NCBI RefSeq assembly: GCF_900104815.1
Contig: NZ_FNTD01000004.1
Span: 2,558,501-2,622,500, forward strand
DNA from: Streptomyces misionensis
GTDB lineage: Bacteria > Actinomycetota > Actinomycetes > Streptomycetales > Streptomycetaceae
Reading direction: 5' to 3'
Length of the DNA stretch: 64,000 nt
In this document: positions 18,141 to 53,609 of the stretch, one piece after another
How the letters are laid out: each line of letters starts with the position of its first letter
Position numbering within the stretch: position 1 is the stretch's first letter
Translations under genes and position numbers: made by a program
The notes under the pieces: generated by a model
The model's input: only the letters and a program-made list of their open reading frames with translations
What the model was told of the DNA's origin: nothing
The model's database searches: none

Positions 18141-19544
18141 TCAGGTCAGCGGCACGCCCGCGCCTGCCAGCCGGCGGAGCTCGTCGGGCGTGAACGTCGG
18201 CCCGTCGGTCAGCGGACGCCGGGGCCCGAGGGCCGCCGCGAGGAGCACGTCCGGGCGGACCAGGACGGTCGGCGGGGCCTGGAGGGTGAGCACCTCGGTG
18301 AGGGCCGTGGCGACGCGGAAGCTGCCGATCGCGGTGTACGACAGCCGGCTCACGTAGCGGTGCAGCAGCCGGTCGCCGAGGTTCGGCCGCCTGCCCTCGG
18401 TGGTGGGGTAGTGCACGTCCTGCCCGACGGCGAGGGACCAGGCGACGTCGACGGGCCGGGCGATGGCGCGCTGGGCCCGCCGGGCCAGTCCGTCCGTGAG
18501 TCCGCCGGCCGCCAACCGCCGCAGCGCGAGGGCGCCTTGGGCCGCCACCGACATGCCCTGCCCGTAGATCGGATTGAACGCGGCCACCGAGTCGCCCAAC
18601 GCGACCAGTCCCTCGGGCCAGTCCCGCAGACGCTCGTAGTAGTGGCGCCGGTTGGTCGTGGTGTGGGTGACGGTGACGTCGGTGAGCGGTTCGGCGCGGG
18701 CCAGCAACTCCGCGACCAGGGGGTGGCGCAGGCCGCGCGCGTACGCCTCGAACGCGTCGGCGTCCGCGGTGGGCTGGTTGCCCGGCGGCCCGTAGAAGCT
18801 CACGTGCCAGCGGTCGCCCTCGATGGGCACGATGGATCCCGCGCCGCCCGGACGCCGCGGGTCGGCCAGCACGTTGACCACCGGCCAGTCGTCGGTGGCG
18901 ACCGGGGCGCGGTAGATCCTGCTCGCGTACGCCAGTCCGGACTCGATGCGGTCCTCCGCCAGCCCGGTGACGCCGAGGCCGGCCAGCCAGCGCGGGGTGC
19001 GGGTGGACCGGCCCGAGGCGTCGACGACGAGGTCCGCGGCGAGTTCGGTCTCGGTGCCGTCGGCGGTGCGCAGCCGCACCCCGGTGACCCGTCCGCGGCC
19101 GCCGAGCAGCCCGACGACCCGGCAGCCGGCACGCGCCCCGACCCGGGGGTCGGCGAGCACCTGCCGGCGCACCACGTGGTCGGTCAGATCGCGGCCGGCG
19201 GCGATCAGGTACTGGGTGGTCCTGCGCCAGCGCCGGTACCAGCCCTCGGCCGAGAGGTAGACCATGTTCGTCGTCATGGGCACCCGGTTGGCGCCCGCCG
19301 CCACCAACTGCTCGACGGTGCCGGGCAGCAGGGCGTCGATGGCGTCCGCGCCGCCGGACAGCAGGGGGTGGACGTGCGCGGCCTGCGGCACACCCGTGCG
19401 GGGCTCGGGCCCGGCGGGCAGCTCGTGCGCCTCGATGATCTCGACGGCGTCGACGGCGTCCTTCACGGCGGCCGCGGCGAGCATGCCGGCGAGACTGCCT
19501 CCGATGACGACGGCACGGGTGGGCTGCTGACGGGGCTCAGTCAC
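18141..19544 (-). CDS. FAD-dependent monooxygenase-like protein (module A)
   Basis: Flavoprotein of the PHBH/group A monooxygenase superfamily, 467 residues. The N-terminal dinucleotide fold is VVIGGSLAGMLAA (a GxGxxG variant with Ser). RTGVPQAAHVHPLLSGG near residues 49-65 and the FAD-ribityl motif GDSVAAFNPIYGQGMSVAA near 326-344 are nearly identical in the module B paralogue at 48350. No membrane segment or signal. It starts with GTG at 19544, overlapping the membrane-protein gene by 8 bases, and is last in module A. The substrate is unknown; the constant pairing with a membrane protein suggests a lipophilic or membrane-delivered substrate (inference). Confidence 0.9.
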   Translation of the reverse strand: MTEPRQQPTRAVVIGGSLAGMLAAAAVKDAVDAVEIIEAHELPAGPEPRTGVPQAAHVHPLLSGGADAIDALLPGTVEQLVAAGANRVPMTTNMVYLSAEGWYRRWRRTTQYLIAAGRDLTDHVVRRQVLADPRVGARAGCRVVGLLGGRGRVTGVRLRTADGTETELAADLVVDASGRSTRTPRWLAGLGVTGLAEDRIESGLAYASRIYRAPVATDDWPVVNVLADPRRPGGAGSIVPIEGDRWHVSFYGPPGNQPTADADAFEAYARGLRHPLVAELLARAEPLTDVTVTHTTTNRRHYYERLRDWPEGLVALGDSVAAFNPIYGQGMSVAAQGALALRRLAAGGLTDGLARRAQRAIARPVDVAWSLAVGQDVHYPTTEGRRPNLGDRLLHRYVSRLSYTAIGSFRVATALTEVLTLQAPPTVLVRPDVLLAAALGPRRPLTDGPTFTPDELRRLAGAGVPLT

Positions 19545-20727
19545 GGTGGCTGCTTTCTGCCTGGGCGGCGCGGGAGCGCTCGCGGAGGGCGGACAGGACG
19601 GGCGAGGACAGGGCCCGGGACAGGGGGATCAGATCACGCGGCTGCCGGGGCGGTGGGTCCGCGGGCCGCCCGGGAACGGCTCCCGCCCGGGACCGCCGGG
19701 TGCGGGCCGCGATGACCATGGCCGCCTCCGCCGTCGCCTCGGCGGTGGCCGCGTCGTCGCCGCGGTCGAGTGCGGCGCGCAGCGCCCGCTCGCGCACGGC
19801 GGGGTCGTAGTGCGGGGCCAGCGCGAGGAGCGCGTCGTAGATGCTGGTCCTGCGGCGGGTGAGCCGTACGGCGGGAGAGGACCACCAGGGCAGGGAGGTG
19901 CGGACCGCGCCGGGCGTGGGCACGTCCCGCAGTTCCTCCCACAGGGGCGTCAGCCGGCGCAACTGCCGCAGCGAGCGGACCGATTGCGCGAGCGGCGGGC
20001 CGGCGAGGGGCACCCCGAAGCCGCAGACCACGAAGGCGGCGGAGGGAGCGGCGGTCTGCGGGGCCACCTGGTCGATGAGGAAGTCCCACCGGTGCCCGGC
20101 CCAACGGCCGCCGATGGCGACGAGCTTGACGACGTCGTAGCACACGTGCAGCAGATAGCCGGGCGCCAGGATGCGCAGTCCGGCCCGCAGCGAGCCGTGG
20201 ACCTGCTTGGACCAGCGCCAGCACAGGACGCTGGTGGCCATCGTGCCCACGCCCTGGGCCACGAGGTAGGTCAGGATCATCTCGCGGATGAACGGGGTGC
20301 TCGCGTAGTACCCGTCGAACAGGGTGAGTTGCTCCACCGGGGCACGCCCCGCCCAGAACAGCACGTTGACGGCGACGACGACCAGGCCGTAGACGAGGAC
20401 GCACACCCGCGAGGCGCGCCGGGTCCGTTCGGCGGGTGCCGGCCGCCAGTTGATGATCAGCAGCAGGCTGGCGCCGCCGAAGACGGCCAGCGCCGAATAG
20501 GCCAGCGGCGCCGCGAAGTTGGGCACGCCGGTGACCCGGTTGATCTCGGCGATCGAGTCCGGTGCGGCGAAGAAGAAGACCAGCGCGCCGTCGAAGAGCA
20601 GCAGGACCACGGAGCCGAGCAGCAGGTCGCGGCGGTGGCGCAGCAGCGCCGGCACCTTCAGCAGACAGATCAGCAGCAGCAGCGTGCCGCAAAGGTAGAA
20701 GACGGTGTTGTCGGGTCCGTGGCTCAC
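19537..20727 (-). CDS. Polytopic membrane protein, MAB_1171c-like (module A)
   Basis: 396-residue protein with about seven hydrophobic segments in the first 250 residues and a long cytosolic C-terminal domain rich in Arg and Ala. Motifs shared with both module B paralogues: GVPNFAAPLAYS after segment 2, FDGYYASTPFIREMI between segments 4 and 5, and IGGRWAGHRW before the last segment. This corresponds to the family labelled MAB_1171c-like putative transporter in public annotation; transport has not been shown. It starts at the ATG at 20727, 40 bases after the ImmA/IrrE-like gene, and overlaps the FAD gene by 8 bases. Confidence 0.88.
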   Translation of the reverse strand: MSHGPDNTVFYLCGTLLLLICLLKVPALLRHRRDLLLGSVVLLLFDGALVFFFAAPDSIAEINRVTGVPNFAAPLAYSALAVFGGASLLLIINWRPAPAERTRRASRVCVLVYGLVVVAVNVLFWAGRAPVEQLTLFDGYYASTPFIREMILTYLVAQGVGTMATSVLCWRWSKQVHGSLRAGLRILAPGYLLHVCYDVVKLVAIGGRWAGHRWDFLIDQVAPQTAAPSAAFVVCGFGVPLAGPPLAQSVRSLRQLRRLTPLWEELRDVPTPGAVRTSLPWWSSPAVRLTRRRTSIYDALLALAPHYDPAVRERALRAALDRGDDAATAEATAEAAMVIAARTRRSRAGAVPGRPADPPPRQPRDLIPLSRALSSPVLSALRERSRAAQAESSHRD

Positions 20728-20767
20728 GGCGGTGAGGGCTCCTCGGGCGGCTCGGTCGTGTCCGGGG

Positions 20768-21376
20768 TCAGGAGCCGCGGATGCGATGCACCAGCGACAC
20801 CCGGATACGGCCCTCCAGCCGAGCGGGGTCGGCGAGCGACCGCGCCTCGGCCAGTGCCTCGCGCACTCCGGTGGCGAACCGGTACCCGAAGAACTCGGCC
20901 TCCTCCTCCTGGCGGACCACGGCCGGGTCGTCGGCCCGCAGGGCGATGTGGAACCCGAGGTCCATCCGCTCCCCGGGCGTCCCGGCCGAACCGTCGTCGC
21001 AGACGTCGGCGACCAGGTCGCGCAGGGCGTCCGGCATCCCGTCGCCGAGCGCGCGGGAGGCGGCCGGGCCGTGCGCCGTCAGGGAACCGCAGTGCCCCTC
21101 GAACATGTGCCAGACCTCGTGCCCGATGATGACCAGCTGGTGGTCGAGGTCGGTGTTCCGCTCGTACGCGATCACGTCCTGGCCGGCGCGGTCGATCCAC
21201 AGCCCGCTGGCGAGTTCGGGCGGAAACGCCACGGCGTGCAGCCGCACGGGCCGCCCCCGCACCTGTGTGACGGCCCTGCCGACGGCGGGCAGGAGGGTGT
21301 CGTCACCGCCGGGCACGTCGAGCGCGGCGAACAACCGCGAACCGAGCCTGCGCATCGCCCTGGTCCCGGCGCTCAC
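20768..21376 (-). CDS. ImmA/IrrE-like HExxH metallopeptidase (module A)
   Basis: Soluble zinc-metallopeptidase-like protein of 202 residues. The active-site motif HEVWH lies in VIIGHEVWHMFEGHC (H86, E87, H90); the third ligand is probably E161 in EEEAEFFGY. ImmA/IrrE relatives cleave XRE-type repressors, and this family is often labelled a toxin. No XRE/HTH gene is adjacent here. The GTG at 21376 is chosen because it gives an N-terminus (VSAGTRAMRR) aligning residue for residue with the paralogue MVRTTRKMRR at 52673, with GAGGAG upstream; the internal ATG at 21355 is the alternative. First gene of module A. Confidence 0.82.
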   Translation of the reverse strand: MSAGTRAMRRLGSRLFAALDVPGGDDTLLPAVGRAVTQVRGRPVRLHAVAFPPELASGLWIDRAGQDVIAYERNTDLDHQLVIIGHEVWHMFEGHCGSLTAHGPAASRALGDGMPDALRDLVADVCDDGSAGTPGERMDLGFHIALRADDPAVVRQEEEAEFFGYRFATGVREALAEARSLADPARLEGRIRVSLVHRIRGS

Positions 21377-21578
21377 CGCACTCCTCGGCAACGACGGAGA
21401 AACGCCGTCGGAAGAGACGGGACGGACTCCACCGGCGTACTCCCAGAATGTGCAACGACTCCAGTTGACGTGCGCACGGCACCCTACCGGAGGGGGTGAG
21501 CGGGCTCAACGGTGGTTTGTGGCCAGGTGGGGTGGGTTCCTGGCGGAGGGACCGGCTTGCGGGCGCGCATGATGCATC

Positions 21579-22151
21579 TCAGTCTTCGGAGAAGGCCCAG
21601 AAGACTCCGACTTCGGAGTCGGAGACGACGACGAGACCGCAGTCCGTGGTGAACTCGGACAGGCAGTTCCACTCGGTGTCGGGGTTCGTCAGATCGGCGT
21701 TCGGATCGTCCCGGGCCTCGGCTGCGTTCGTATAGTGATCAGCCTTGTCGCCGAACCGGGAAAGGACTCTCCCGGCGCATTCGAAGAGCCGGTCCTTGCG
21801 CCTGACGAAATCCGGGATGTTGGCCGACTGGTAGAACTCCCCTTGCAGGGCCACCAGTAGCTGCGTGGCGGATTCCCTGCCCACGGGGTGGAGGAGCCTG
21901 TCGAATTCATCGAGACGGAGATCAGCGAACGGCTTCTCGTCGGCCCTCGCCGCGCCGCTGGCCGGCGGGGTGGAAACCAGGGTGTTCCACCTACGCGGAT
22001 CCTTAGCCCGGAGCGTCATGACCGCCTGGACATCGCGCCGCCAGTCCTCGTGGGCTCGCGGCCCTGCCGCCGCGAAGGCGAAGGTCCCCCCGAACAACTC
22101 CAGCAGACCGGCCTGCCAGGAAGCGGAGTCGAGCACTCGGTCTCCTTTCAC
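21579..22151 (-). CDS. Unknown 190-aa protein, last gene of the WXG-Fic operon
   Basis: Soluble acidic protein with no signal or membrane segment. The C-terminus has an alternating strand pattern (CGLVVVSDSEVGVFWAFSED). No catalytic motif is recognised. Its ATG overlaps the Fic stop codon (ATGA at 22148-22151), so it is translated with Fic; that position would suit an immunity or antitoxin protein, but this is an inference. Base composition is clearly lower in GC than the flanking genes. Confidence 0.7.
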   Translation of the reverse strand: MKGDRVLDSASWQAGLLELFGGTFAFAAAGPRAHEDWRRDVQAVMTLRAKDPRRWNTLVSTPPASGAARADEKPFADLRLDEFDRLLHPVGRESATQLLVALQGEFYQSANIPDFVRRKDRLFECAGRVLSRFGDKADHYTNAAEARDDPNADLTNPDTEWNCLSEFTTDCGLVVVSDSEVGVFWAFSED

Positions 22152-22792
22152 GGCGACTGCTGAACCGTGTCATTCTGCCCACGCCGGCCGGTCGCCATGG
22201 CCAAGGTGTGGATGACCCGGGCCAGCGACGCGGCACCAACGGCATCGTCCGCGTACCTGCGGATCTGGATGGGGCCCACTTCCTCCAGGAAGACGTTCTC
22301 CCGTGCCAGCACGAAGCCCAGTGCCAGCAGAGCGGCGCGACCGTTGCCGTCGTGGAACGGATGAAAGAAGCAGACGTCGAGGTACAAGCGTGCGGCGCGT
22401 GCGGCCAGGGGAACGTCCGAGGCCCCACTCTCGGCCAGGCAGGCATCGAAGAGCAGTGGGGTCTCGGCGCCGAGTCCGTACCGTTCCCTTCCCTTCTTGG
22501 CGAAGGCGGGCAGCATGCGAAACGAGACCTCGGGGAGGCCAAGGACGAGTTTCTGCCACTCGCTGAGCAGACGGAATTCGAGGAGCGCTCCGGCCGCTGC
22601 GTCCGAACACGCTCGCTGCCAGGCGGCCCGCAGTCTGTCACCACGCGTGGTGTCTCCCGGCCTGTCACGCAGGGCGGCCGCAGCCAGGATCCCGTCGCGG
22701 CGCCCACGGATCGGACCGGTCACATCCTTCACGTCACCCCAATCGACCTCCTCACGGACGCGAAGCCAAGCCTGTAGATCGTCACGCACCAT
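22148..22792 (-). CDS. Fic-domain protein (probable AMP-transferase)
   Basis: Fic proteins transfer AMP or related groups from nucleotides to target hydroxyls. The core motif HPFHDGNGRA (residues 144-153) matches the active consensus HPFx[D/E]GNGR fully, so catalysis is expected. It has 214 residues. I see no clear inhibitory [S/T]xxxE[G/N] helix in this protein or its neighbours. It starts at the ATG at 22792, overlapping the upstream gene by 11 bases and the downstream one by 4. It is in one operon with two WXG-type proteins, so it may be a type VII-associated effector or a toxin-antitoxin toxin. Confidence 0.88.
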   Translation of the reverse strand: MVRDDLQAWLRVREEVDWGDVKDVTGPIRGRRDGILAAAALRDRPGDTTRGDRLRAAWQRACSDAAAGALLEFRLLSEWQKLVLGLPEVSFRMLPAFAKKGRERYGLGAETPLLFDACLAESGASDVPLAARAARLYLDVCFFHPFHDGNGRAALLALGFVLARENVFLEEVGPIQIRRYADDAVGAASLARVIHTLAMATGRRGQNDTVQQSP

Positions 22793-23402
22793 GCTTCCCG
22801 ATGATGTCGCGTGCCTTGTCCACTGCCTCGGCATCAGGCGCGATCCAACTTTGGAACTCCCCGTCGACGACGTCGTCGGCAAGCTCCTCCGCGTCTTCGG
22901 GGGCCATGCCCGTCGATTCGAGGTACCAGGTCAGTGTCCGCGCGCACGCGGCACGCCAAAGTTCGCCCGCACTGGTGCGTTCCACCACAAGAGCCACCAC
23001 GGGGGCCACACCGCGCTCGCGGGAGCGACGCTTTTCTTCTTCGTCTGCGTCGGTGTCGGGAGCGGAGTCGGCGAAAACCGCGGACAAGGTCTCGATCCAC
23101 GAACGCCACTCCAGCAAGATCTCTGTATAGCGCCGAGCCTGAGCGTCGAGATCCTCGGCAGTGTCACACAGAGGTTTCCTGATGAGCGCGCCCGCGTCGG
23201 GGTCCTGATCCACGTTCCCCAACCAGCCGAATGCCCAGGAACCATAGTGCTCGGCCAAACCACAGGCCACCGAATGGGCAGACCACAGTCCTCGCGGTCT
23301 GCCGGTTCCCGGATCCGGGGAGAAAACCACATCGCGTACTACGGCGAGCGCTTGCTCGGGGTCGAATGGGTGCGTGGTCGGATCCACATCCTTCCACGTC
23401 AT
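22782..23402 (-). CDS. Unknown 206-aa acidic protein upstream of Fic
   Basis: Soluble, strongly acidic protein with no signal peptide. The central part is helical (AEDLDAQARRYTEILLEWRSWIETLSAVFA, shown here only by its ends AEDLDA...SAVFA) followed by an Asp/Glu run, and the C-terminus ends in ELADDVVDGEFQSWI. No known domain recognised. It overlaps the fic start by 11 bases, so it is co-translated and a candidate antitoxin, chaperone or immunity partner. It starts at the ATG at 23402 with a weak ribosome binding site. The neighbouring WXG-type gene ends 52 bases upstream. Confidence 0.7.
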   Translation of the reverse strand: MTWKDVDPTTHPFDPEQALAVVRDVVFSPDPGTGRPRGLWSAHSVACGLAEHYGSWAFGWLGNVDQDPDAGALIRKPLCDTAEDLDAQARRYTEILLEWRSWIETLSAVFADSAPDTDADEEEKRRSRERGVAPVVALVVERTSAGELWRAACARTLTWYLESTGMAPEDAEELADDVVDGEFQSWIAPDAEAVDKARDIIGKHGA

Positions 23403-23454
23403 TGACTCGGGATACCAGAGGCTGTTGATCGCTGCTCCTGAAGTGGCGTGTGGA

Positions 23455-24231
23455 TCAGGGAGTCGGCATGGACGTCAGAACAACGAACGGCGGAGTGAGC
23501 GAGGGATCGTACTTGAGGATGGTCCGCACGTTCTTGACCGGGATCGCCCGGGCATCCAAGCCCTTGTTCTTGAAGCCATCCCCGTTCACGTTGTTCGCCT
23601 GCTTGGTGACGCTGCGCCCGCTGTCCTCGCCATCTGGAGCGGCACATTCGACAGGCAGTTTCAGATCGTCATTCGCCGCCGAGGGTGGGCGTCCCAGCAA
23701 GATCTCGGCTCCGACTTCGGCACCTTTTTCCAAGAGGCCGCCGAGGAGTCGACCGACGGTCTTGACTCCCGCTTTGACGTCTTCCATGTCGAATCCGTCG
23801 CTGAAATCGATACTCTTGACCGCCTGTTTCACCGCATCGAAATAAATGTTCCAGACTTTGTGGTTGAGGTCGACCGCAGCCTCCGCCAGTTCCCGGAGAA
23901 GGTCACTGATCTTTTCAGCGCTGTCGAAGAGGACCGACATGACCGGGTGCGTCGCGGTGGGGCTGGACGCCTTGTCGTGCTGCCACTGGTAGGGGGAGCC
24001 GCCGGGATTGTTCTTGCCCCAGGCCGTCGTTCCCCACAATGCGCTGCAGAACTGACGCATAGCGTCGTACCACTCACTGTTGCTCTGCTGCGTGATGCCG
24101 CTCACGTAGCCGGTCAGCATGCTCTCCGTCGTGGAGAGCGCGATGGTCATGTCCGCCCACGCCTGCGACAGGGAGTTCAGGTAGTGCTGCTGCGGGGGGT
24201 CGGCGTGGTCATCAGGCGGCTCCCCAGCCAC
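23455..24231 (-). CDS. WXG/LXG-like secreted-effector-type protein
   Basis: About 258 residues, mainly helical. The N-terminal half has spaced Trp-Gly motifs (SALWGTTAWG) and a helix-turn-helix hairpin layout resembling WXG/LXG proteins exported by ESX/type VII systems. A Gly-rich amphipathic stretch follows (VGRLLGGLLEKGAEVGAEILLG). The C-terminal 70 residues are polar and end in an unassigned beta-type domain; no known toxin motif is seen. The GTG at 24231, overlapping the WXG100 stop by 20 bases, is the preferred start, but the ATG at 24150 is possible. It belongs to the lower-GC operon. Confidence 0.65.
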   Translation of the reverse strand: MAGEPPDDHADPPQQHYLNSLSQAWADMTIALSTTESMLTGYVSGITQQSNSEWYDAMRQFCSALWGTTAWGKNNPGGSPYQWQHDKASSPTATHPVMSVLFDSAEKISDLLRELAEAAVDLNHKVWNIYFDAVKQAVKSIDFSDGFDMEDVKAGVKTVGRLLGGLLEKGAEVGAEILLGRPPSAANDDLKLPVECAAPDGEDSGRSVTKQANNVNGDGFKNKGLDARAIPVKNVRTILKYDPSLTPPFVVLTSMPTP

Positions 24232-24523
24232 GGAGCACCGCCCGGTGCGCGGCGGCGTAATTGGCGTGCCCGGTGGTGACGTACGCGTGCAGCCACTTCT
24301 GGGCCGCCTGGAGGTCCTGCGCGGAGCGGTCCCATTCGTCCAGTTTCTCGACGAAGACCTCGCGGGCCTCGCCCTTCCAGGACAGTACGACCGGTTCCAC
24401 GCGGTGGTAGAGATCGCCCAGTTCGCCGTTGAGCTTCTTGAGGATGTCCTCCAGGTCCATGGCGAGTTCATGGAGCGTGGCGAACGAGACAGTGATGTGG
24501 TCGCCGTCGGCACCGGTCGACAT
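24212..24523 (-). CDS. WXG100-family (ESAT-6-like) protein
   Basis: 103 residues, two long helices separated by a central turn with the W-x-G signature WKG (VLSWKGEAREVF) near residue 48, the defining mark of WXG100 proteins, which are exported as helical-hairpin dimers by ESX/type VII systems. There is a well placed ribosome binding site (AAGGGGG) before the ATG at 24523. First gene of the five-gene operon reaching to 21579. No type VII ATPase (EccC) or channel gene lies in the window, so export would depend on machinery elsewhere. Confidence 0.85.
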   Translation of the reverse strand: MSTGADGDHITVSFATLHELAMDLEDILKKLNGELGDLYHRVEPVVLSWKGEAREVFVEKLDEWDRSAQDLQAAQKWLHAYVTTGHANYAAAHRAVLRGWGAA

Positions 24524-25037
24524 GTTTCCCCCTTGGTGTCGGTCGCCTTGATGGTGAGCCGGTCACGTCGCGCCGGAAGTGTCAGAAGCCGTCCAGGCTG
24601 CTGTGCGGACGCGTCGACGCTCACCGGCCCCGGTATTCGGCGTGGACAGCTTGTCGGCCTCGCTGCCGATGTCCACGTGGATCCGTCGCATCTGGTCGTA
24701 CCACCCGTCATCGGCGCCACCAAGGGCCCACCGGCGGGGTCATTCTACGGCGGACCCGCCGGAAGGCTTCCTGAGCGCTTCCCGTAGTCAACTCCCGTTC
24801 CGCGCAGGCGAACTGGAAACACCACGGTTGCCGACGGCCGGCCGGTTGATCCATGGGCGCCTCGACGGGCCCGTGAGGCCCCCACCTGGCTGGACCGAGC
24901 GGAGTTCCGACGGCGGACCGGCTCCTCGGTCGCTTTCGTTTCGAGCGTGCTTGTGTGCAACGGCTCCACAGGCACTGCGCGAACCGCGCTCGGTGGGATC
25001 CACATGCCTGACCGCCGGCCGGGACGGAGACGGAGAA
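24524..25037. other. 514-base stretch without a supported gene
   Basis: Must hold the promoter of the WXG-Fic operon and the 3' processing/termination region of rnpB. One imperfect hairpin is visible at 24731-24762 (CCGGCGGG...CCCGCCGG). Open frames here are short, mutually overlapping and without ribosome binding sites. Composition rises back to chromosomal GC across the stretch, so it marks the edge of the accessory block. Confidence 0.6.
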
Positions 25038-48349: not shown

Positions 48350-49747
48350 TCAGCCGATGCCGGCCAGGAAGGCCCGTTCGGCGGCGGTCAGCGGCGGCCC
48401 GGCGAGGGCGGGCAGCGGGGGCCCGGCGAGGCTGTGCAGCAGGGCGTCCGGGCGGAACAGGCGGGACGGCGGGGTGCGCAGGGTGGTGACGTCCCACAGC
48501 GCGGCGGCCGCGGCGTACGACCCGGTGGCCGCCCGCGTCAGCCGCTGGGAGTAGGCGGCGGCCACCCGGTCCCCGGGGGTCGCCCGGCCGCCCTCCACGC
48601 CGGGGTAGAGGACGTCGGTGCTGACCGCCATCGTCCAGGCGCCGTCGGCGGCCCGGCCCACCGCGCGCTGGACCCGGCGGGCCAGTCCGGGCGTGCCGAT
48701 GCCGTCCTCGCGCAGTGCCCGGGCGAGGGCCAGGGCGCCGTGCGCCGCGACCGACATGCCCTGCCCGTAGATCGGGTTGAACGTGGCCGCCGCGTCCCCG
48801 AGCGCCACGAAGCCCTCCGGCCACACGGGCGCGTCCTCCAGGTACCGGCGGGAGTTGCTGGTGCTGCGGCTGACGTGCACCGGGCCGAGGGGCTCGGCGG
48901 CCCGGATCAGCCGGCCCACCAGGGGGCTCGGCAGGTCGAGCGCGTACCCGACGAAGCCCTCGGGGTCCTTCGGGGGTTCGCTGCCGCGCATCCCGCCGAG
49001 GCTCACCATCCACCGGTCGTCCTCGATGGGCACGATCATGGCGCTGCGGCCGGGCCGCCCGCTCCACGGGTCGGCCTGGATCAGGGTCATCGGCCAGTCG
49101 CGGGCCCCGTCCGGGACCCGGTAGACCCGGGTGGCGTTGGCCAGGCCGCTGTCGACGCCGCGCTCGCGGATGCCGTGCACGCCGAGGGTGTCGAGCCAGG
49201 CCAGCAGCCGGGTGCCGCGGCCGCCGGCCTCCACCACCCAGTCCGCGTCCAGGTCCTGCGCGGGCCCGCCGTCCGGGCCGGCCAGCCGCACCCCGGTCAC
49301 CCGGCGGGCGCTGCCGCGCAGCCCGGTCACCCGCGCGTGGCGCACCCGCACGTTCTCGCCGCAGCGCAGCACCGCCCGGCGCACCACCCACTCCAGCAGC
49401 GGCCGGCTGGAGGTGATCGTGACGTGCGAACGGTGCCGCCAGCGCCGGAACCAGCCCACCGGGGTGAGCGCCACCATGTCGCGGCTCAGCGCCGTCTCCC
49501 GGGCGCCCGCCGCCAGCAGCTCGGCGCGCAGACCGGCCCGGGGCAGCAGCTCCTCCATCGCGTCCATGCCGCCGGGCATCAGCAGATGGGCGTGCCGGGA
49601 CTGCGGCACCCCCGTGCGGTGCTCGGGCCCGTCGGGCAGCTCGTCGCGATCGACCACCACGACCTCCTCCACGGCCGGCGACAGCGCCGCGGCGGCCAGC
49701 AGACCGGCCGGTCCGGCCCCGATGACAACGGCTCTTCGTGCGTTCAC
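48350..49747 (-). CDS. FAD-dependent monooxygenase-like protein (module B)
   Basis: 465-residue paralogue of the module A flavoprotein at 18141. The Rossmann loop GAGPAGLLAAAAL is canonical. RTGVPQSRHAHLLMPGGMDA and GDAAATFNPIYGQGMSVAA are shared with module A. The two differ in the central substrate region, so the modules may act on different compounds. GTG start at 49747, 43 bases after the membrane-protein gene. Last gene of module B. Confidence 0.9.
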   Translation of the reverse strand: MNARRAVVIGAGPAGLLAAAALSPAVEEVVVVDRDELPDGPEHRTGVPQSRHAHLLMPGGMDAMEELLPRAGLRAELLAAGARETALSRDMVALTPVGWFRRWRHRSHVTITSSRPLLEWVVRRAVLRCGENVRVRHARVTGLRGSARRVTGVRLAGPDGGPAQDLDADWVVEAGGRGTRLLAWLDTLGVHGIRERGVDSGLANATRVYRVPDGARDWPMTLIQADPWSGRPGRSAMIVPIEDDRWMVSLGGMRGSEPPKDPEGFVGYALDLPSPLVGRLIRAAEPLGPVHVSRSTSNSRRYLEDAPVWPEGFVALGDAAATFNPIYGQGMSVAAHGALALARALREDGIGTPGLARRVQRAVGRAADGAWTMAVSTDVLYPGVEGGRATPGDRVAAAYSQRLTRAATGSYAAAAALWDVTTLRTPPSRLFRPDALLHSLAGPPLPALAGPPLTAAERAFLAGIG

Positions 49748-49790
49748 GCTTCCTCTTCCCTCCGCTCGGACGTCCGCCGCGCGGGCGGCC

Positions 49791-50972
49791 TCAGCCGCCC
49801 GCGGTCCGTGCCGCGCCCTGCCGAGCCGCCTCGACGACGGATGATCCGGCCAACGCCCGGGCGAGCCGTACGAGTTCCCGGGTGTCCGAGAAGAGGGCCG
49901 TGTGCAGCCGGTCGGTGCCCTCCGGTCCGGCGCTCTCGGCCGGGCGGGGCCGCCGGGCCTGCCGGGCGGCGTCCACGACCATGGCGGCGGCCGCGATGAA
50001 GTGCGCCTCGCCGGGCGGGCTGCCCTGGGCCCGGGCCCGCTGGTACGCCGTCTCGCGCACCCGGCCGTCGCAGCGGGACTGGAGGGCGAGCAGCGCGTCG
50101 AGGATGCGCAGCTCGCGGTAGTACAGCCGGCCGCGCGGCAGCAGCCAGCGCGGCGGCGCGGGCTTGGGGGCGGTGGGCACGCTGCGCAGCTCCGCCCACA
50201 GGGGGCCGAGCGCCCGGTAGTCCCAGACGCTGTGCCACTGGGCGAGGGCCGCGGGCAGCAGCCGGGGCAGCACGAAGCCGGCGGCGCACAGCAGGGCGCC
50301 CAGGGCGGCGGCGCGCGGGGCGAGACCGGTGGACAGCCGGTCCAGGTCGTGCCCGGCCCACCGGGCCGCGACCGCCGTCAGCTTGGCGCCCTCGAAGCCG
50401 GTGACGTCCACGGCCAGGCCCGCCATGATCAGCCGCAGCCCGACCCGGAGGATGCCGGTGACCTCCCGCGACCAGCGCAGGCACACATAGATGGTGATCA
50501 GCGCGCAGGCACCGTGTCCGAGGAGGTACAGCACGATCATCTCGCGCATGTACGGGGTGTTCGCGTAGTAGGTGTCCAGGTCCCGCAGCCGCTCGGCCGG
50601 CGCGTCGGCCAGCGCGAACAGGGTGATCACGGCGGTGATCACCAGGCTGTACACGGTGATCACCCGCACCGCCTGGCGCCGTACCCGCTCGGCCGGTCCA
50701 CCGCGCCAGTTGATCAGCAGGATCAGCAGCGAGGCGCTGTAGGCGGAGATGACGCTGTAGGTCATCGGGGCGCCGAAGTTGGGGACGCGGGTGAGGTGGT
50801 TGACCGCGCCGAGGGTGACGGGGGCCGAGCAGAAGAAGCACAGCCCGCCGAGGAAGATCGACACGCAGGTGGAGGCGGTCAGCGGGTCCCGCAGGGCGAG
50901 CCGCGGTCTGCGGAAGACCAGCAGGGCGGTCGCGGTGAACAGGCTCGCCACCGTGTAGACGATCAGGCTCAT
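49791..50972 (-). CDS. Polytopic membrane protein, MAB_1171c-like (module B, second copy)
   Basis: 393 residues; hydrophobic segments in the first 250 and a cytosolic tail, as in module A. Shared motifs: RVPNFGAPMTYS, DTYYANTPYMREMIVLYL and AARWAGHDL. It is adjacent to and 16 bases downstream of a second paralogue (50989), so the membrane gene was duplicated within this module. Starts at the ATG at 50972. Function unknown, transport only presumed from the family label. Confidence 0.88.
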   Translation of the reverse strand: MSLIVYTVASLFTATALLVFRRPRLALRDPLTASTCVSIFLGGLCFFCSAPVTLGAVNHLTRVPNFGAPMTYSVISAYSASLLILLINWRGGPAERVRRQAVRVITVYSLVITAVITLFALADAPAERLRDLDTYYANTPYMREMIVLYLLGHGACALITIYVCLRWSREVTGILRVGLRLIMAGLAVDVTGFEGAKLTAVAARWAGHDLDRLSTGLAPRAAALGALLCAAGFVLPRLLPAALAQWHSVWDYRALGPLWAELRSVPTAPKPAPPRWLLPRGRLYYRELRILDALLALQSRCDGRVRETAYQRARAQGSPPGEAHFIAAAAMVVDAARQARRPRPAESAGPEGTDRLHTALFSDTRELVRLARALAGSSVVEAARQGAARTAGG

Positions 50973-50988
50973 GGCGCGACGGCTCCCT

Positions 50989-52125
50989 TCAGGCCACGGC
51001 CAGGGCGCGGTCGCCCGTGCCGTCGGCGAGCGCGTCGGAGATGCGCAGCAGCGCCGGCAGGTCGGGGCGGTCGGCGAGCGGTACGGCCGCTTGCGCCGGC
51101 CGCTCGTGCGGCGCCCGGGTGGCGGCGGCGATCGCCGCGGCCCACGCGGCGGCCTGGGCCTCGTGCGGGTCGCCGCCCGCGCGCAGCCGGTCGGCGTAGG
51201 TCTGCCGGTACAGCCCCTCGTCCAGGTAACGCCCCAGATAGTGCAGCCCGTTGTAGATGGAGCTCTGCCGCCAGGTCAGCCAGCGGGTGGCGGACGGCCA
51301 CCGGGGGCGCGGCACCCGCAGGGCCTCGCGGGTGAGCAGCCCGGTGAGCGCCCGTTCCAGCGGGCCGAGCCGCGCGTACGTCCGCCAGCAGCACACCCGC
51401 TCGGCCAGGAAGGGCGCGAGGAGCGGGATCACGATGCCGACGACGGTGAGCGCCGCGCTGAGCCCGGCGCAGGCCGACGCGAAGGTCGTGCCGAGCGCGG
51501 GCCAGTCGTGTCCGCCCCAACGGCCGCCCACGGCCGCGAGTTTGGCGGCGCTGTAGCCGCACCCGGCCACGGTGCCCGTCCCCATGGTCACCAGACCGGC
51601 CCGCAGCGACCCGCGCAGCCGCCGGGCCCAGGACAGCGAGCGGTGGGCGGTGACCAGGGCGGCGGTCAGGTGCGCGGCGAGGTAGAGGACGATCATCTCG
51701 CCGATGTAGGGCGTGGTGGCGTAGTACGTGTCGAAGTCCGTGCGGCGCTCCACGGAGGCGTCGCCGAGCACGAACAGGGCGGCGATGCCCGCGAGTACGG
51801 CGGTGTAGCCGAGGGTCCAGCGGCGGATCGCGCGGGTGGTGCCCGGGCCGCCGCGCCAGCGCGTGACGAGCGCGAGGGAGGCGGCGCCGTAGGCGGTGAT
51901 GGTGCCGTACGTCAGCGGGGCGGCCAGGTTGGGCACGCCGCTGACGTCGTTGACGAAGCCGACCGTGTCGGGAGCGCCGAACAGGAAGCACAGCGAGGAG
52001 AGGGCCAGCACGGTGCTGAGGGTGAGCAGGAAGGGGTCCCGCCAGCGCCGCGCCAGGTCGGGCGCCTTGGTCAGCAGGCCCAGCCACAGCAGTCCGCAGC
52101 TGACGTAGTTGATCAGGTCGCTCAC
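50989..52125 (-). CDS. Polytopic membrane protein, MAB_1171c-like (module B, first copy)
   Basis: 378 residues. Shared motifs: GVPNLAAPLTYG, DFDTYYATTPYIGEMIVLYL and VGGRWGGHDWPALG. The N-terminal half (SDLINYVSCGLLWLGLL) starts with a membrane segment and seven segments follow. The GTG at 52125 overlaps the ImmA/IrrE-like stop by 4 bases (GTGA). The C-terminal tail has no recognisable domain. It diverges substantially from its neighbour, so the duplication is old or the two copies have different jobs. Confidence 0.88.
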   Translation of the reverse strand: MSDLINYVSCGLLWLGLLTKAPDLARRWRDPFLLTLSTVLALSSLCFLFGAPDTVGFVNDVSGVPNLAAPLTYGTITAYGAASLALVTRWRGGPGTTRAIRRWTLGYTAVLAGIAALFVLGDASVERRTDFDTYYATTPYIGEMIVLYLAAHLTAALVTAHRSLSWARRLRGSLRAGLVTMGTGTVAGCGYSAAKLAAVGGRWGGHDWPALGTTFASACAGLSAALTVVGIVIPLLAPFLAERVCCWRTYARLGPLERALTGLLTREALRVPRPRWPSATRWLTWRQSSIYNGLHYLGRYLDEGLYRQTYADRLRAGGDPHEAQAAAWAAAIAAATRAPHERPAQAAVPLADRPDLPALLRISDALADGTGDRALAVA

Positions 52126-52673
52126 CTTCGGGCCCCGCGGTAGTTGAGGGCCGCGCCGATGCGTCCGGCGAGGTCGTCGTGGCCGGAGGTGTGCGCCGCG
52201 TACACGGAATCGGGGGAGGCTTTCAGCCAGGGCCGCAGCCGGTCGCCGATCAGCATGCCGAACAGGTCGGCCCGCTGCTCGGCGGCCTCCAGGAAGCGGG
52301 TGCGGGCGGCGGTGGGCGGCGCGTCGTCGGCGCCGGCCGGCGCGAGGGCGCCCTCGGCGTGCGCGGCGCGGTGCGCCGGGTCGTCGTCGGCCATGTGCCA
52401 CAGCTCGTGACCCAGGATCACCAGCTTCATCCAGGGCGGGGCGTCGGCCTCGATGACGATGTCGTCGCGGGTGCCGCGGTCGATCCACAGCCCGGTCGCG
52501 GAGGTCTGCGGCGGGAAGTTCGCCAAGTGGACGGCGATGGGCCGGCCGCGCCAGCGGGTGGCGGACTCGACCAGCGCGTCCAGCAGGTCGCCGGGGTCGG
52601 CGGGGATCGGCACTCGGAGGGGATCGATCAGCTCGTTGGCGAACCGGCGCATCTTCCTGGTTGTTCGCACCAT
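52122..52673 (-). CDS. ImmA/IrrE-like HExxH metallopeptidase (module B)
   Basis: 183-residue paralogue of the module A protein at 20768. Active site HELWH in VILGHELWHMADDD (H89, E90, H93), with the third ligand probably D136 in EQRADLFG. GLWIDRG and the N-terminal MRRF block are shared with module A. The start at 52673 (ATG) has no strong ribosome binding site. A perfect 7-bp palindrome lies 18 bases upstream. First gene of module B. Confidence 0.88.
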   Translation of the reverse strand: MVRTTRKMRRFANELIDPLRVPIPADPGDLLDALVESATRWRGRPIAVHLANFPPQTSATGLWIDRGTRDDIVIEADAPPWMKLVILGHELWHMADDDPAHRAAHAEGALAPAGADDAPPTAARTRFLEAAEQRADLFGMLIGDRLRPWLKASPDSVYAAHTSGHDDLAGRIGAALNYRGARR

Positions 52674-52872: not shown

Positions 52873-53544
52873 TCAGGCCAGTTGCCCGACCTCGCGTACC
52901 AGCCTCCCCGCCTCCCCCAGCAGCCCGGTCTCCGCCGCGCTCATCGTCGGATTGTCCGCGCGCCGCCGCAGCGCCCGCGCCAGCCCCTCCCCGGTGAGGC
53001 CGGAGGGGTCGGCCAGCAGGGCGTCCAGCATCGCGCGGGCGGGTGCCGCGAGGGCGCCGGGGGCCACGGCGACCTGGGCGAGGATCACCGCGGACATGCC
53101 CCAGTCCAGTCCCGGGTGCCCGTCCTCGGCGTTGGACCAGTCGATGACCCGGGGCCCGTCCGGGGTGAGCATCACGTTGTCGGGGTGCAGGTCCAGGTGC
53201 AGCACCCGCGCGTCCGGGTCGCGCGGGTCCCGGCCCGGCACGGCGTGCAGCCGGCGCAGCAGCCGGGCGAGCAGCGCCCCCGCCTCCGCCGGCTCCACCC
53301 GGCCCCGCGTCAGGGCGCCGAGCAGGGTGGGGCCGGACAGCCGCTCCAGGACCAGGTCGGTGCGGGAGCCGGTGGGGCGCACGCGGGGTGCCGGATAGCC
53401 GTGCCGCCGTACGTACGTCATCACGGCGCCCTCGGCCGCCGCGTCCCCCCAGCCCTCCCGGTCACGGCGCAACACCCAGTCGGCGTCGATCTCGTAGACG
53501 TCCGCCGAGCGGCCGGAGCCCAGCAGTCTTCCGGTGGTTGTCAT
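52873..53544 (-). CDS. Aminoglycoside-phosphotransferase-like kinase
   Basis: Protein of the APH/choline-kinase fold, 223 residues (short; usual range 250-300). The catalytic loop LHLDLHPDNVM near residue 125-135 has the HxDxxxxN set, and the metal site VIDWSNAEDGHPGLDWG near 141-157 has the Asp (D of DW). The N-lobe is reduced (LLGSGRSADVYEID). Such proteins phosphorylate aminoglycosides, macrolides or small metabolites; substrate unknown. The ATG at 53544 follows an AGGG box; the upstream in-frame ATG/GTG codons are less likely. Confidence 0.85.
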   Translation of the reverse strand: MTTTGRLLGSGRSADVYEIDADWVLRRDREGWGDAAAEGAVMTYVRRHGYPAPRVRPTGSRTDLVLERLSGPTLLGALTRGRVEPAEAGALLARLLRRLHAVPGRDPRDPDARVLHLDLHPDNVMLTPDGPRVIDWSNAEDGHPGLDWGMSAVILAQVAVAPGALAAPARAMLDALLADPSGLTGEGLARALRRRADNPTMSAAETGLLGEAGRLVREVGQLA

Positions 53545-53609
53545 GACCGTGACCCTAATCACCGGGGCCTCGTGCCGGCGGCCGCTCCTCGGGGCCGCGG
53601 GGCTGCCGG

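What the first reader, a model, noticed from the sequence alone, without database searches (positions are those of the whole stretch)
18141..21376. Module A: metallopeptidase, membrane protein and flavoprotein as one system
An ImmA/IrrE-like HExxH protein, a 7-segment membrane protein and an FAD monooxygenase are co-translated (40-base gap and 8-base overlap) and the same trio recurs at 48-52 kb. The membrane protein shares the motifs FDGYYASTPFIREMI and GGRWAGH with its paralogues. A plausible model is a membrane sensor or flippase that supplies a lipophilic compound to a flavin enzyme, with the protease releasing a regulator, yet no XRE target is adjacent. The recurring architecture with no known function is the best candidate here for an undescribed system.
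Basis: partly seen in the sequence, partly recalled or inferred. Interest (0 to 1): 0.75.

Follow-up and report, generated by a model that had tools for sequence, protein, structure and literature searches.

The report
Receptor-protease-repressor module with swappable enzyme
In Streptomyces a receptor-shaped membrane protein, a protease of a repressor-cutting type and a metabolic enzyme are inherited together as one gene set, often with a gene repressor that has been lost from this copy, which suggests an undescribed way for these bacteria to sense a chemical and switch on the enzyme that deals with it.

Summary
At 18141-21376 (minus strand) lie an ImmA/IrrE-type metallopeptidase, a DUF6545/MAB_1171c membrane protein and a flavin enzyme, spaced as stated; 48350-52673 repeats them with two membrane proteins. 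It is a real module: of 53 relatives of the flavin enzyme with enough upstream DNA, 44 have DUF6545 within 700 bases upstream and 42 have ImmA. Around 38 sampled DUF6545 genes, 35 have ImmA directly upstream and 24 an EspR-like XRE regulator before it. The enzyme behind varies: flavin epoxidase, P450, amidohydrolase, dehydrogenase and others. The missing XRE is present in some sister copies; in the window only its promoter and a 19-codon remnant remain. The membrane protein models as a GPCR-like seven-helix fold, not a flippase; the protease as IrrE/CapP-like; the flavin enzyme is related to the polyether epoxidases Lsd18 and MonCI. Best reading: a ligand-gated switch in which receptor activates protease, protease removes repressor, and the enzyme is made. 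Parts and linkage are shown; ligand, activation, cleavage and repression are inferred. Six literature searches found no description. New variant of a known kind.

The parts
20768..21376 (-). ImmA/IrrE-type metallopeptidase (module A), GTG start 21376
19537..20727 (-). DUF6545 / MAB_1171c-family protein: seven-helix receptor-like part (residues 1-266) and cytosolic helical C-terminal domain (285-396)
18141..19544 (-). flavin-dependent epoxidase-like monooxygenase (module A)
   Evidence: phmmer to Lsd18/LasC E 3.8e-103 and MonCI E 7.7e-95
21373..21432 (-). putative remnant of the XRE gene: 19 codons whose start resembles the XRE 5' end, stop overlapping the ImmA start by 4 bases
   Evidence: compared with XRE 5' ends of L039, L042, L043 and L084; no other XRE similarity in 20501-24500 at E<=0.1
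21481..21509 (-). putative promoter TTGAGC-17-TAGGGT
   Evidence: read by eye; similar boxes precede the XRE gene in sister modules
21508..21517 (-). degenerate operator-like site (AACCACCGTT; AACGATCGTT or AACGATCATT in sister modules with an XRE)
52122..52673 (-). ImmA/IrrE-type metallopeptidase (module B)
50989..52125 (-). DUF6545 protein, first copy of module B, 4-base overlap with ImmA
   Evidence: NF042915 102.8 bits
49791..50972 (-). DUF6545 protein, second copy of module B
   Evidence: NF042915 104.3 bits
48350..49747 (-). flavin epoxidase-like enzyme (module B), 51% identical to module A

Best explanation
A ligand-gated derepression module. Full order in relatives: EspR-like XRE repressor, ImmA-type protease, DUF6545 seven-helix receptor, enzyme. 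Proposed steps: the receptor senses a small, probably lipophilic molecule; its cytosolic helical domain activates the protease encoded next to it; the protease cuts the XRE repressor; the operon is derepressed and the enzyme (here a flavin epoxidase) modifies the molecule, which ends the signal. Shown: the parts, their order and spacing, conservation of the protease active site, a receptor-like predicted fold, linkage of receptor clade and enzyme class, and an operator-like site over the promoter of some XRE-bearing sister modules. Inferred: ligand, protease activation, cleavage and repression. In window module A the XRE gene is reduced to a remnant and the operator-like site is degenerate, so this copy is probably expressed without its own repressor; its protease may act on another EspR-like protein.
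For: Linkage: of 53 flavin loci, 44 with DUF6545 <=700 bases upstream, 42 with ImmA <=3.5 kb, 13 with XRE <=6.5 kb; of 38 DUF6545 loci, 35 with ImmA <=300 bases upstream (32 of these overlapping or <=20 bases apart) and 24 with XRE upstream. Genomes: EspR-like XRE in 75 of 83 genomes with DUF6545 and 2 of 18 without. Protease: invariant HE, second His and a Glu in at least 90%; IrrE/PprI/CapP fold. XRE of L006: homologous to M. tuberculosis EspR, E 1.6e-22, matches CapH, E 9.6e-10. Receptor: the 50 structural matches shown are natural or designed seven-helix GPCR-like folds. Enzyme class follows receptor clade: 17 changes against 33.1 in shuffles. Operator-like word: 11 sites in 1.38 Mb against 0-1 in five simulated sets (partly circular), and again upstream of the XRE in both plasmid modules of the full order.
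Against: No experiment. Only 13 of 53 flavin loci have a recognised XRE within 6.5 kb, yet ImmA is kept, so the target is often elsewhere or is not an XRE. The XREs next to module-A relatives are weak matches (23-29 bits) and none of those five reached a Pfam HTH cut-off. The palindrome is not exclusive: 69 of 101 genomes hold it. Foldseek found no match at E<=0.001 for either model. Receptor clade and enzyme class may be linked by plain co-inheritance, P450 modules fall in three places on the tree, and several branches are long. 8 of 83 genomes with DUF6545 have no EspR-like gene at the cut-off used. NCBI names the membrane protein a putative transporter.
Confidence: 0.5

Rival explanations
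1. Autoinducer circuit: the enzyme makes or matures the ligand (a hormone-like small molecule) that the receptor senses.
For: Several of the alternative enzymes are of tailoring kinds: epoxidase, P450, short-chain dehydrogenase, acyl-CoA dehydrogenase, AMP ligase. Lsd18 and MonCI act in biosynthesis (abstract starts).
Against: Amidohydrolase and amidase modules look degradative; no gene of synthase size was called in the window, the largest called gene being 581 aa (not scanned by profile).
Confidence: 0.2
2. Export system: DUF6545 is a transporter (its NCBI name) that exports the product of the enzyme; protease and XRE only regulate expression.
For: NCBIfam name; a M. abscessus MAB_1171c mutant makes about half the biofilm and the paper suggests export (PMC8707978, passages).
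Against: GPCR-like predicted fold and topology; no transporter among the 50 structural matches shown; many loci have no same-strand gene close behind DUF6545.
Confidence: 0.15
3. Toxin-antitoxin or phage-defence locus: ImmA/XRE as in CapP/CapH with unrelated cargo.
For: Two plasmid ImmA genes are annotated as toxin; the L006 XRE matches CapH.
Against: No PADLOC match for the other eight proteins tested; cargo is metabolic; the membrane partner is conserved.
Confidence: 0.08
4. Hitch-hiking: core receptor and protease are functional, but the enzymes behind them are passengers.
For: The enzyme varies and is often absent.
Against: The flavin gene closely follows DUF6545 in 44 of 53 flavin loci and overlaps it by 8 bases also on a plasmid; enzyme class tracks receptor clade.
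Confidence: 0.07

Closest known systems
ImmR/ImmA of ICEBs1 (XRE repressor and anti-repressor metallopeptidase)
   Same: Repressor gene and metallopeptidase gene in tandem in relatives; M78-type fold and HExxH here; cleavage of ImmR by ImmA is reported (PMC8960796, passages).
   Different: Adds a seven-helix membrane protein and a metabolic enzyme; XRE is EspR-like; no integrase or conjugation genes were seen in the module (gene order).
CapH/CapP regulators of immune operons
   Same: The L006 XRE matches the CapH model, the protease model matches CapP; CapP is activated by ssDNA and cuts CapH (PMC13373217, passages).
   Different: Cargo is metabolic, not immune; a membrane receptor-like protein accompanies the protease.
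BlaR1/BlaI/BlaZ (recalled, from no call)
   Same: Logic: membrane sensor, repressor proteolysis, induction of an enzyme that destroys the ligand.
   Different: Sensor and protease are separate proteins here and of other families.
MAB_1171c family (NF042915) / DUF6545 (PF20182)
   Same: The membrane protein is a member by score.
   Different: I found no shown function; the name says putative transporter; here it models as a receptor and sits in a regulatory module.
Lsd18/LasC and MonCI polyether epoxidases
   Same: Full-length homology, E 3.8e-103 and 7.7e-95.
   Different: No gene of synthase size was called in the window (largest 581 aa); substrate unknown.
Xre-COG2856 gene pairs of Makarova et al. 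2009
   Same: The XRE and Zn-protease pairing, with a further, more complex cascade proposed (PMC2701414, passages).
   Different: That survey set aside XRE-membrane pairs and does not, in the passages seen, describe this four-gene module.

Membership tests
MAB_1171c family / DUF6545 | score over NCBIfam and Pfam cut-offs | tested here: met
   139.1 over 100 and 58.5 over 24.4 bits for module A; module B copies 104.3 and 102.8 bits on NCBIfam
MAB_1171c family / DUF6545 | transport activity implied by the name | not testable with these tools
   fold search gave GPCR-like folds, which does not test transport
Peptidase M78 (ImmA/IrrE) | HExxH zinc motif plus downstream acidic ligand | tested here: met
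   H86 and E87 invariant, H90 and E157 at least 90% in an alignment of 68
Peptidase M78 (ImmA/IrrE) | profile match to PF06114 | tested here: inconclusive
   40 of 68 aligned proteins match at E<=0.5, best 1.2e-5; the window's module A protein has no match
Peptidase M78 (ImmA/IrrE) | IrrE-like fold | tested here: met
ImmR/ImmA-type derepression system | XRE repressor gene next to the protease gene | tested here: inconclusive
   not met in the window (remnant only); XRE upstream in 24 of 38 DUF6545 loci and 13 of 53 flavin loci
ImmR/ImmA-type derepression system | protease cuts the repressor | not testable with these tools
   needs a cleavage assay
Lsd18/MonCI flavin epoxidase family | full-length sequence homology | tested here: met
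   residues 10-464 aligned, 349 bits
Lsd18/MonCI flavin epoxidase family | alkene epoxidation | not testable with these tools
   needs an enzyme assay
G-protein-coupled receptor superfamily | detectable common ancestry | tested here: inconclusive
anti-phage defence system | match to PADLOC models | tested here: not met
   no match for the seven window proteins nor for the L039 XRE; the L006 XRE matches capH

The most novel reading that the evidence does not exclude
DUF6545 proteins are a large family of bacterial seven-helix chemoreceptors that signal, not through kinases or G proteins, but by switching on a dedicated metallopeptidase that destroys an EspR-like repressor; each receptor clade is matched to its own ligand-modifying enzyme, so the genomes carry a readable set of receptor-enzyme pairs.
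Probability: 0.3. Interest if true: 0.88.

Novelty: new variant of a known kind. Interest (0 to 1): 0.66.

Why it matters
If true, it gives a function to a family present in 83 of 101 sampled genomes of the window's genus and now labelled a putative transporter, links EspR-like and ImmA-like proteins to small-molecule sensing, and makes the ligand guessable from the neighbouring enzyme. It would also show a bacterial membrane protein of GPCR-like fold coupled to regulated proteolysis of a repressor.

Tried and rejected
Flippase or transporter: not excluded, but the fold search gave GPCR-like folds. Defence system: PADLOC gave nothing for the window proteins. Chance juxtaposition: rejected by the locus survey. 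Operator word as a module-specific mark: weakened, since 69 of 101 genomes hold the 10-mer; its absence from the window's genome is weak evidence because 32 of 101 genomes, this one included, lack it. A shared operator between the window modules and the orphan EspR locus: none seen by eye in alignments of upstream regions (no motif search was run on them). Flavin enzyme presence against DUF6545 presence at genome level: weak link only (76 of 83 against 13 of 18, p 0.04); the flavin family at E<=1e-60 also holds relatives without partners. Plasmids: of five loci read, two (L166, L170) have XRE, ImmA, DUF6545 and flavin enzyme in order; L167 has no flavin enzyme, L168 has it on the other strand and no XRE match, L169 has DUF6545 and flavin genes with ImmA on the far side and no XRE match. 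Paper searches for the module: 'MAB_1171c' 1 paper, 'DUF6545' none, EspR+ImmA+Streptomyces 13 papers, none on it by title and abstract start, five of ImmA, IrrE, Streptomyces, P450, XRE and integral membrane protein 3 papers, none on it, receptor, metallopeptidase, XRE, actinobacteria, ImmA 45 papers of which 20 were listed, none on it by title and abstract start, COG2856+Streptomyces+membrane protein 2 papers.

Rows dropped or chosen: of 56 flavin loci, 3 (L047, L061, L065) had under 2 kb upstream and were left out of the counts. The flavin scan used two short peptide patterns, so it sees only part of the family. The 38 DUF6545 loci are about every fourth row of the matches listed, a list cut off at the better scores; a few rows on short contigs were swapped for neighbouring rows. 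The tree used 63 proteins: DUF6545-anchored loci, every second flavin locus, and the window. Enzyme names rest on Pfam scans of representatives; other members were placed by BLAST clusters. In some searches the entries for the two DUF6545 genes of module B (proteins 5 and 6) and two more (proteins 8 and 9) were wrong-frame ORFs without a match; the module B DUF6545 genes rest.
Full report
What is there. The three ORFs exist as described, on the minus strand: ImmA-type metallopeptidase 20768-21376, membrane protein 19537-20727, flavin enzyme 18141-19544, with a 40-base gap and an 8-base overlap. The second copy, 48350-52673, has ImmA, two membrane proteins and the flavin enzyme. The genome has five genes of the membrane family in four loci. 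ImmA adjoins every one of the four. The flavin enzyme adjoins only the two in the window. A locus on contig C3 has XRE, ImmA, membrane protein and an amidohydrolase; the fourth (L007) has ImmA and membrane protein only. The best protein match of the membrane protein is 96% identical and named Streptomyces misionensis, so the genome is probably close to that species; this is inference.

The families. The membrane protein belongs to the NCBIfam family 'MAB_1171c family putative transporter' and to Pfam DUF6545. The flavin enzyme is a full-length relative of the epoxidases Lsd18/LasC and MonCI, which form epoxides in lasalocid and monensin biosynthesis (abstract starts seen). The protease keeps HExxH and a downstream glutamate in an alignment of 68 proteins, 19-92% identical to the window's; 40 of the 68 match Pfam M78 at E<=0.5, though the window's module A protein does not. 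The XRE of the C3 locus is homologous to M. tuberculosis EspR, E 1.6e-22, and matches the CapH model, E 9.6e-10.

Is the association real? I scanned the collection of 84,980 species genomes with two peptide patterns of the flavin enzyme alone and got 56 loci. Of the 53 with at least 2 kb upstream, 44 have DUF6545 within 700 bases upstream on the same strand, 42 have ImmA within 3.5 kb and 13 an EspR-like XRE within 6.5 kb. The nine without close DUF6545 are L038, L044, L045 and L082 (no partner found), L055 and L057 (DUF6545 about 5.5 kb upstream), L058 (partners on the other strand), L084 (XRE directly before the flavin gene) and L089 (1-kb gap). Starting instead from DUF6545 in 101 genomes of the genus (83 of 101 have it), I read 38 loci: 35 have ImmA within 300 bases upstream, 32 of those overlapping or at most 20 bases apart; two have XRE and ImmA downstream; one (L120) has no ImmA; 24 have XRE upstream, 12 have none. 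Of five plasmid loci annotated by others, two show XRE, ImmA, DUF6545 and flavin enzyme in this order, one of them with the same 8-base overlap of membrane and flavin genes; the other three are incomplete or rearranged. In the phylum, DUF6545 over the NCBI cut-off is found in 9 of 296 genomes, eight of them in this genus. In five loci from genomes of other families (L140, L146, L147, L149, L150) the DUF6545 match, weak in all but L140, also lies beside ImmA and XRE matches.

The enzyme is exchangeable. Representative genes behind DUF6545 were scanned: amidohydrolase, cytochrome P450, aldo/keto reductase, amidase, acyl-CoA dehydrogenase, AMP ligase, short-chain dehydrogenase, sugar kinase, an FMN oxidoreductase and others, one without any family. 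On a tree of 63 DUF6545 proteins the enzyme classes need 17 changes, against 33.1 on average in 200 shuffles, none as low. The 25 flavin-linked proteins fall in one supported group of 33 rows, the other 8 having no enzyme; P450 is split over three places, and several branches are long. Linked descent alone could give this.

The missing XRE. In five sister copies of module A an XRE-like gene stands first: L039, L042 and L043 have the full order XRE-ImmA-DUF6545-flavin enzyme, L049 lacks a recognised ImmA, and L084 lacks ImmA and DUF6545. These XREs match my EspR profile weakly (23-29 bits) and none reaches a Pfam HTH cut-off, but they align with the EspR-like set. Read by eye, a promoter of TTGNNN, 16-18 bases, TANGGT precedes them, and AACGATCGTT or AACGATCATT overlaps the first box. 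In the window the boxes are at 21509-21504 and 21486-21481, 17 apart, the palindrome reads AACCACCGTT, and behind it stand only 19 codons (VESVPSLPTA...), whose start resembles the XRE start (VESTPLPET in L084), ending in a stop that overlaps the ImmA start. The near relative L037 shows the same promoter and a slightly longer remnant. The simplest reading, an inference, is that the repressor gene was lost by an internal deletion while promoter and coupling stayed. The protease keeps its active site all the same.

How good is the operator? The 10-mer and close variants occur 11 times in 1.38 Mb of loci, all within about 520 bases upstream of an XRE or ImmA start, against 0 or 1 in five simulated sets. 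The word was found by looking at some of these loci, so this is partly circular. The two full plasmid modules, fetched later, carry it upstream of their XRE; L167, with XRE but no flavin gene, does not. Genome-wide it is not exclusive: 69 of 101 genomes have it, and the window's genome is one of 32 without. By eye, in the capped list, sites in G007, G017 and G022 lie about 2.5 kb upstream of flavin hits.

EspR elsewhere. Whole-genome search finds two strong EspR-like genes (about 160 bits; the next has 29): one in the C3 module and an orphan at C4:6644103. Within 1.5 kb of the orphan no ImmA or DUF6545 is found. Its neighbours match those of complete XRE-ImmA-DUF6545 modules in L119, L124 and L125, to whose XRE it is 90-93% identical (77-82% to those of L112, L115, L127 and L050). 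So ImmA and DUF6545 were probably lost there and the XRE kept. It is a candidate target in trans; both points are inference. Across 101 genomes an EspR-like gene (E<=1e-12) is found in 75 of 83 with DUF6545 and 2 of 18 without (Fisher p 6e-11, no correction for kinship).

Mechanism. ImmA cuts the repressor ImmR (PMC8960796, passages), and CapP, once activated by ssDNA, cuts CapH (PMC13373217, passages). Placing a receptor-like membrane protein and an enzyme in the same gene set suggests that the receptor supplies the activating signal and the enzyme acts on, or makes, the ligand. I give the sensor-derepression reading 0.5, the autoinducer form 0.2, export 0.15, defence 0.08, passengers 0.07.

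Novelty. Six searches of an open-access library found no description of the module. Makarova et al. 2009 describe Xre-COG2856 pairs, propose that the protease cuts an Xre repressor within a more complex cascade, and set aside XRE-membrane pairs (PMC2701414, passages). One paper reports that a MAB_1171c mutant of M. abscessus forms about half the biofilm (PMC8707978, passages). Most subscription journals are not in the library.

Noticed in passing
window 21579-24723: Upstream of module A lies a minus-strand set of ORFs, one with HPFHDGNGR, the Fic-type motif (recalled, not scanned); my simple gene caller found only fragments there, which hints at unusual composition.
   Followed up: no
L131 (G000:C4:6644103): Orphan EspR-like XRE gene where relatives have a complete XRE-ImmA-DUF6545 module.
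   Followed up: partly
L040, L083, L114: Tandem or nested modules with two flavin genes or several DUF6545 genes in one run.
   Followed up: no
L055 and L057, 200-7000: A long opposite-strand ORF (about 1230 aa) and another gene sit between DUF6545 and the flavin gene, as if inserted.
   Followed up: no
L084 6266-8404: XRE directly followed by the flavin gene without ImmA or DUF6545.
   Followed up: no
L051-L092, many loci: Many module B-type loci are flanked by an IclR-like and an SMP-30/gluconolactonase-like gene on the opposite strand (clusters seen in 32 and 31 loci; one member of each scanned), as at one stable chromosomal site.
   Followed up: partly
101 genomes of the genus: AACGATCGTT occurs in 69 of 101 genomes, its backwards control word in 7; I matched the sites of only three genomes to flavin hits, by eye, so the others may be operators of related XRE proteins.
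   Followed up: no
window 52873-53562: Next to module B, upstream on the same strand, an ORF that reads like a small-molecule phosphotransferase (by eye, not scanned).
   Followed up: no
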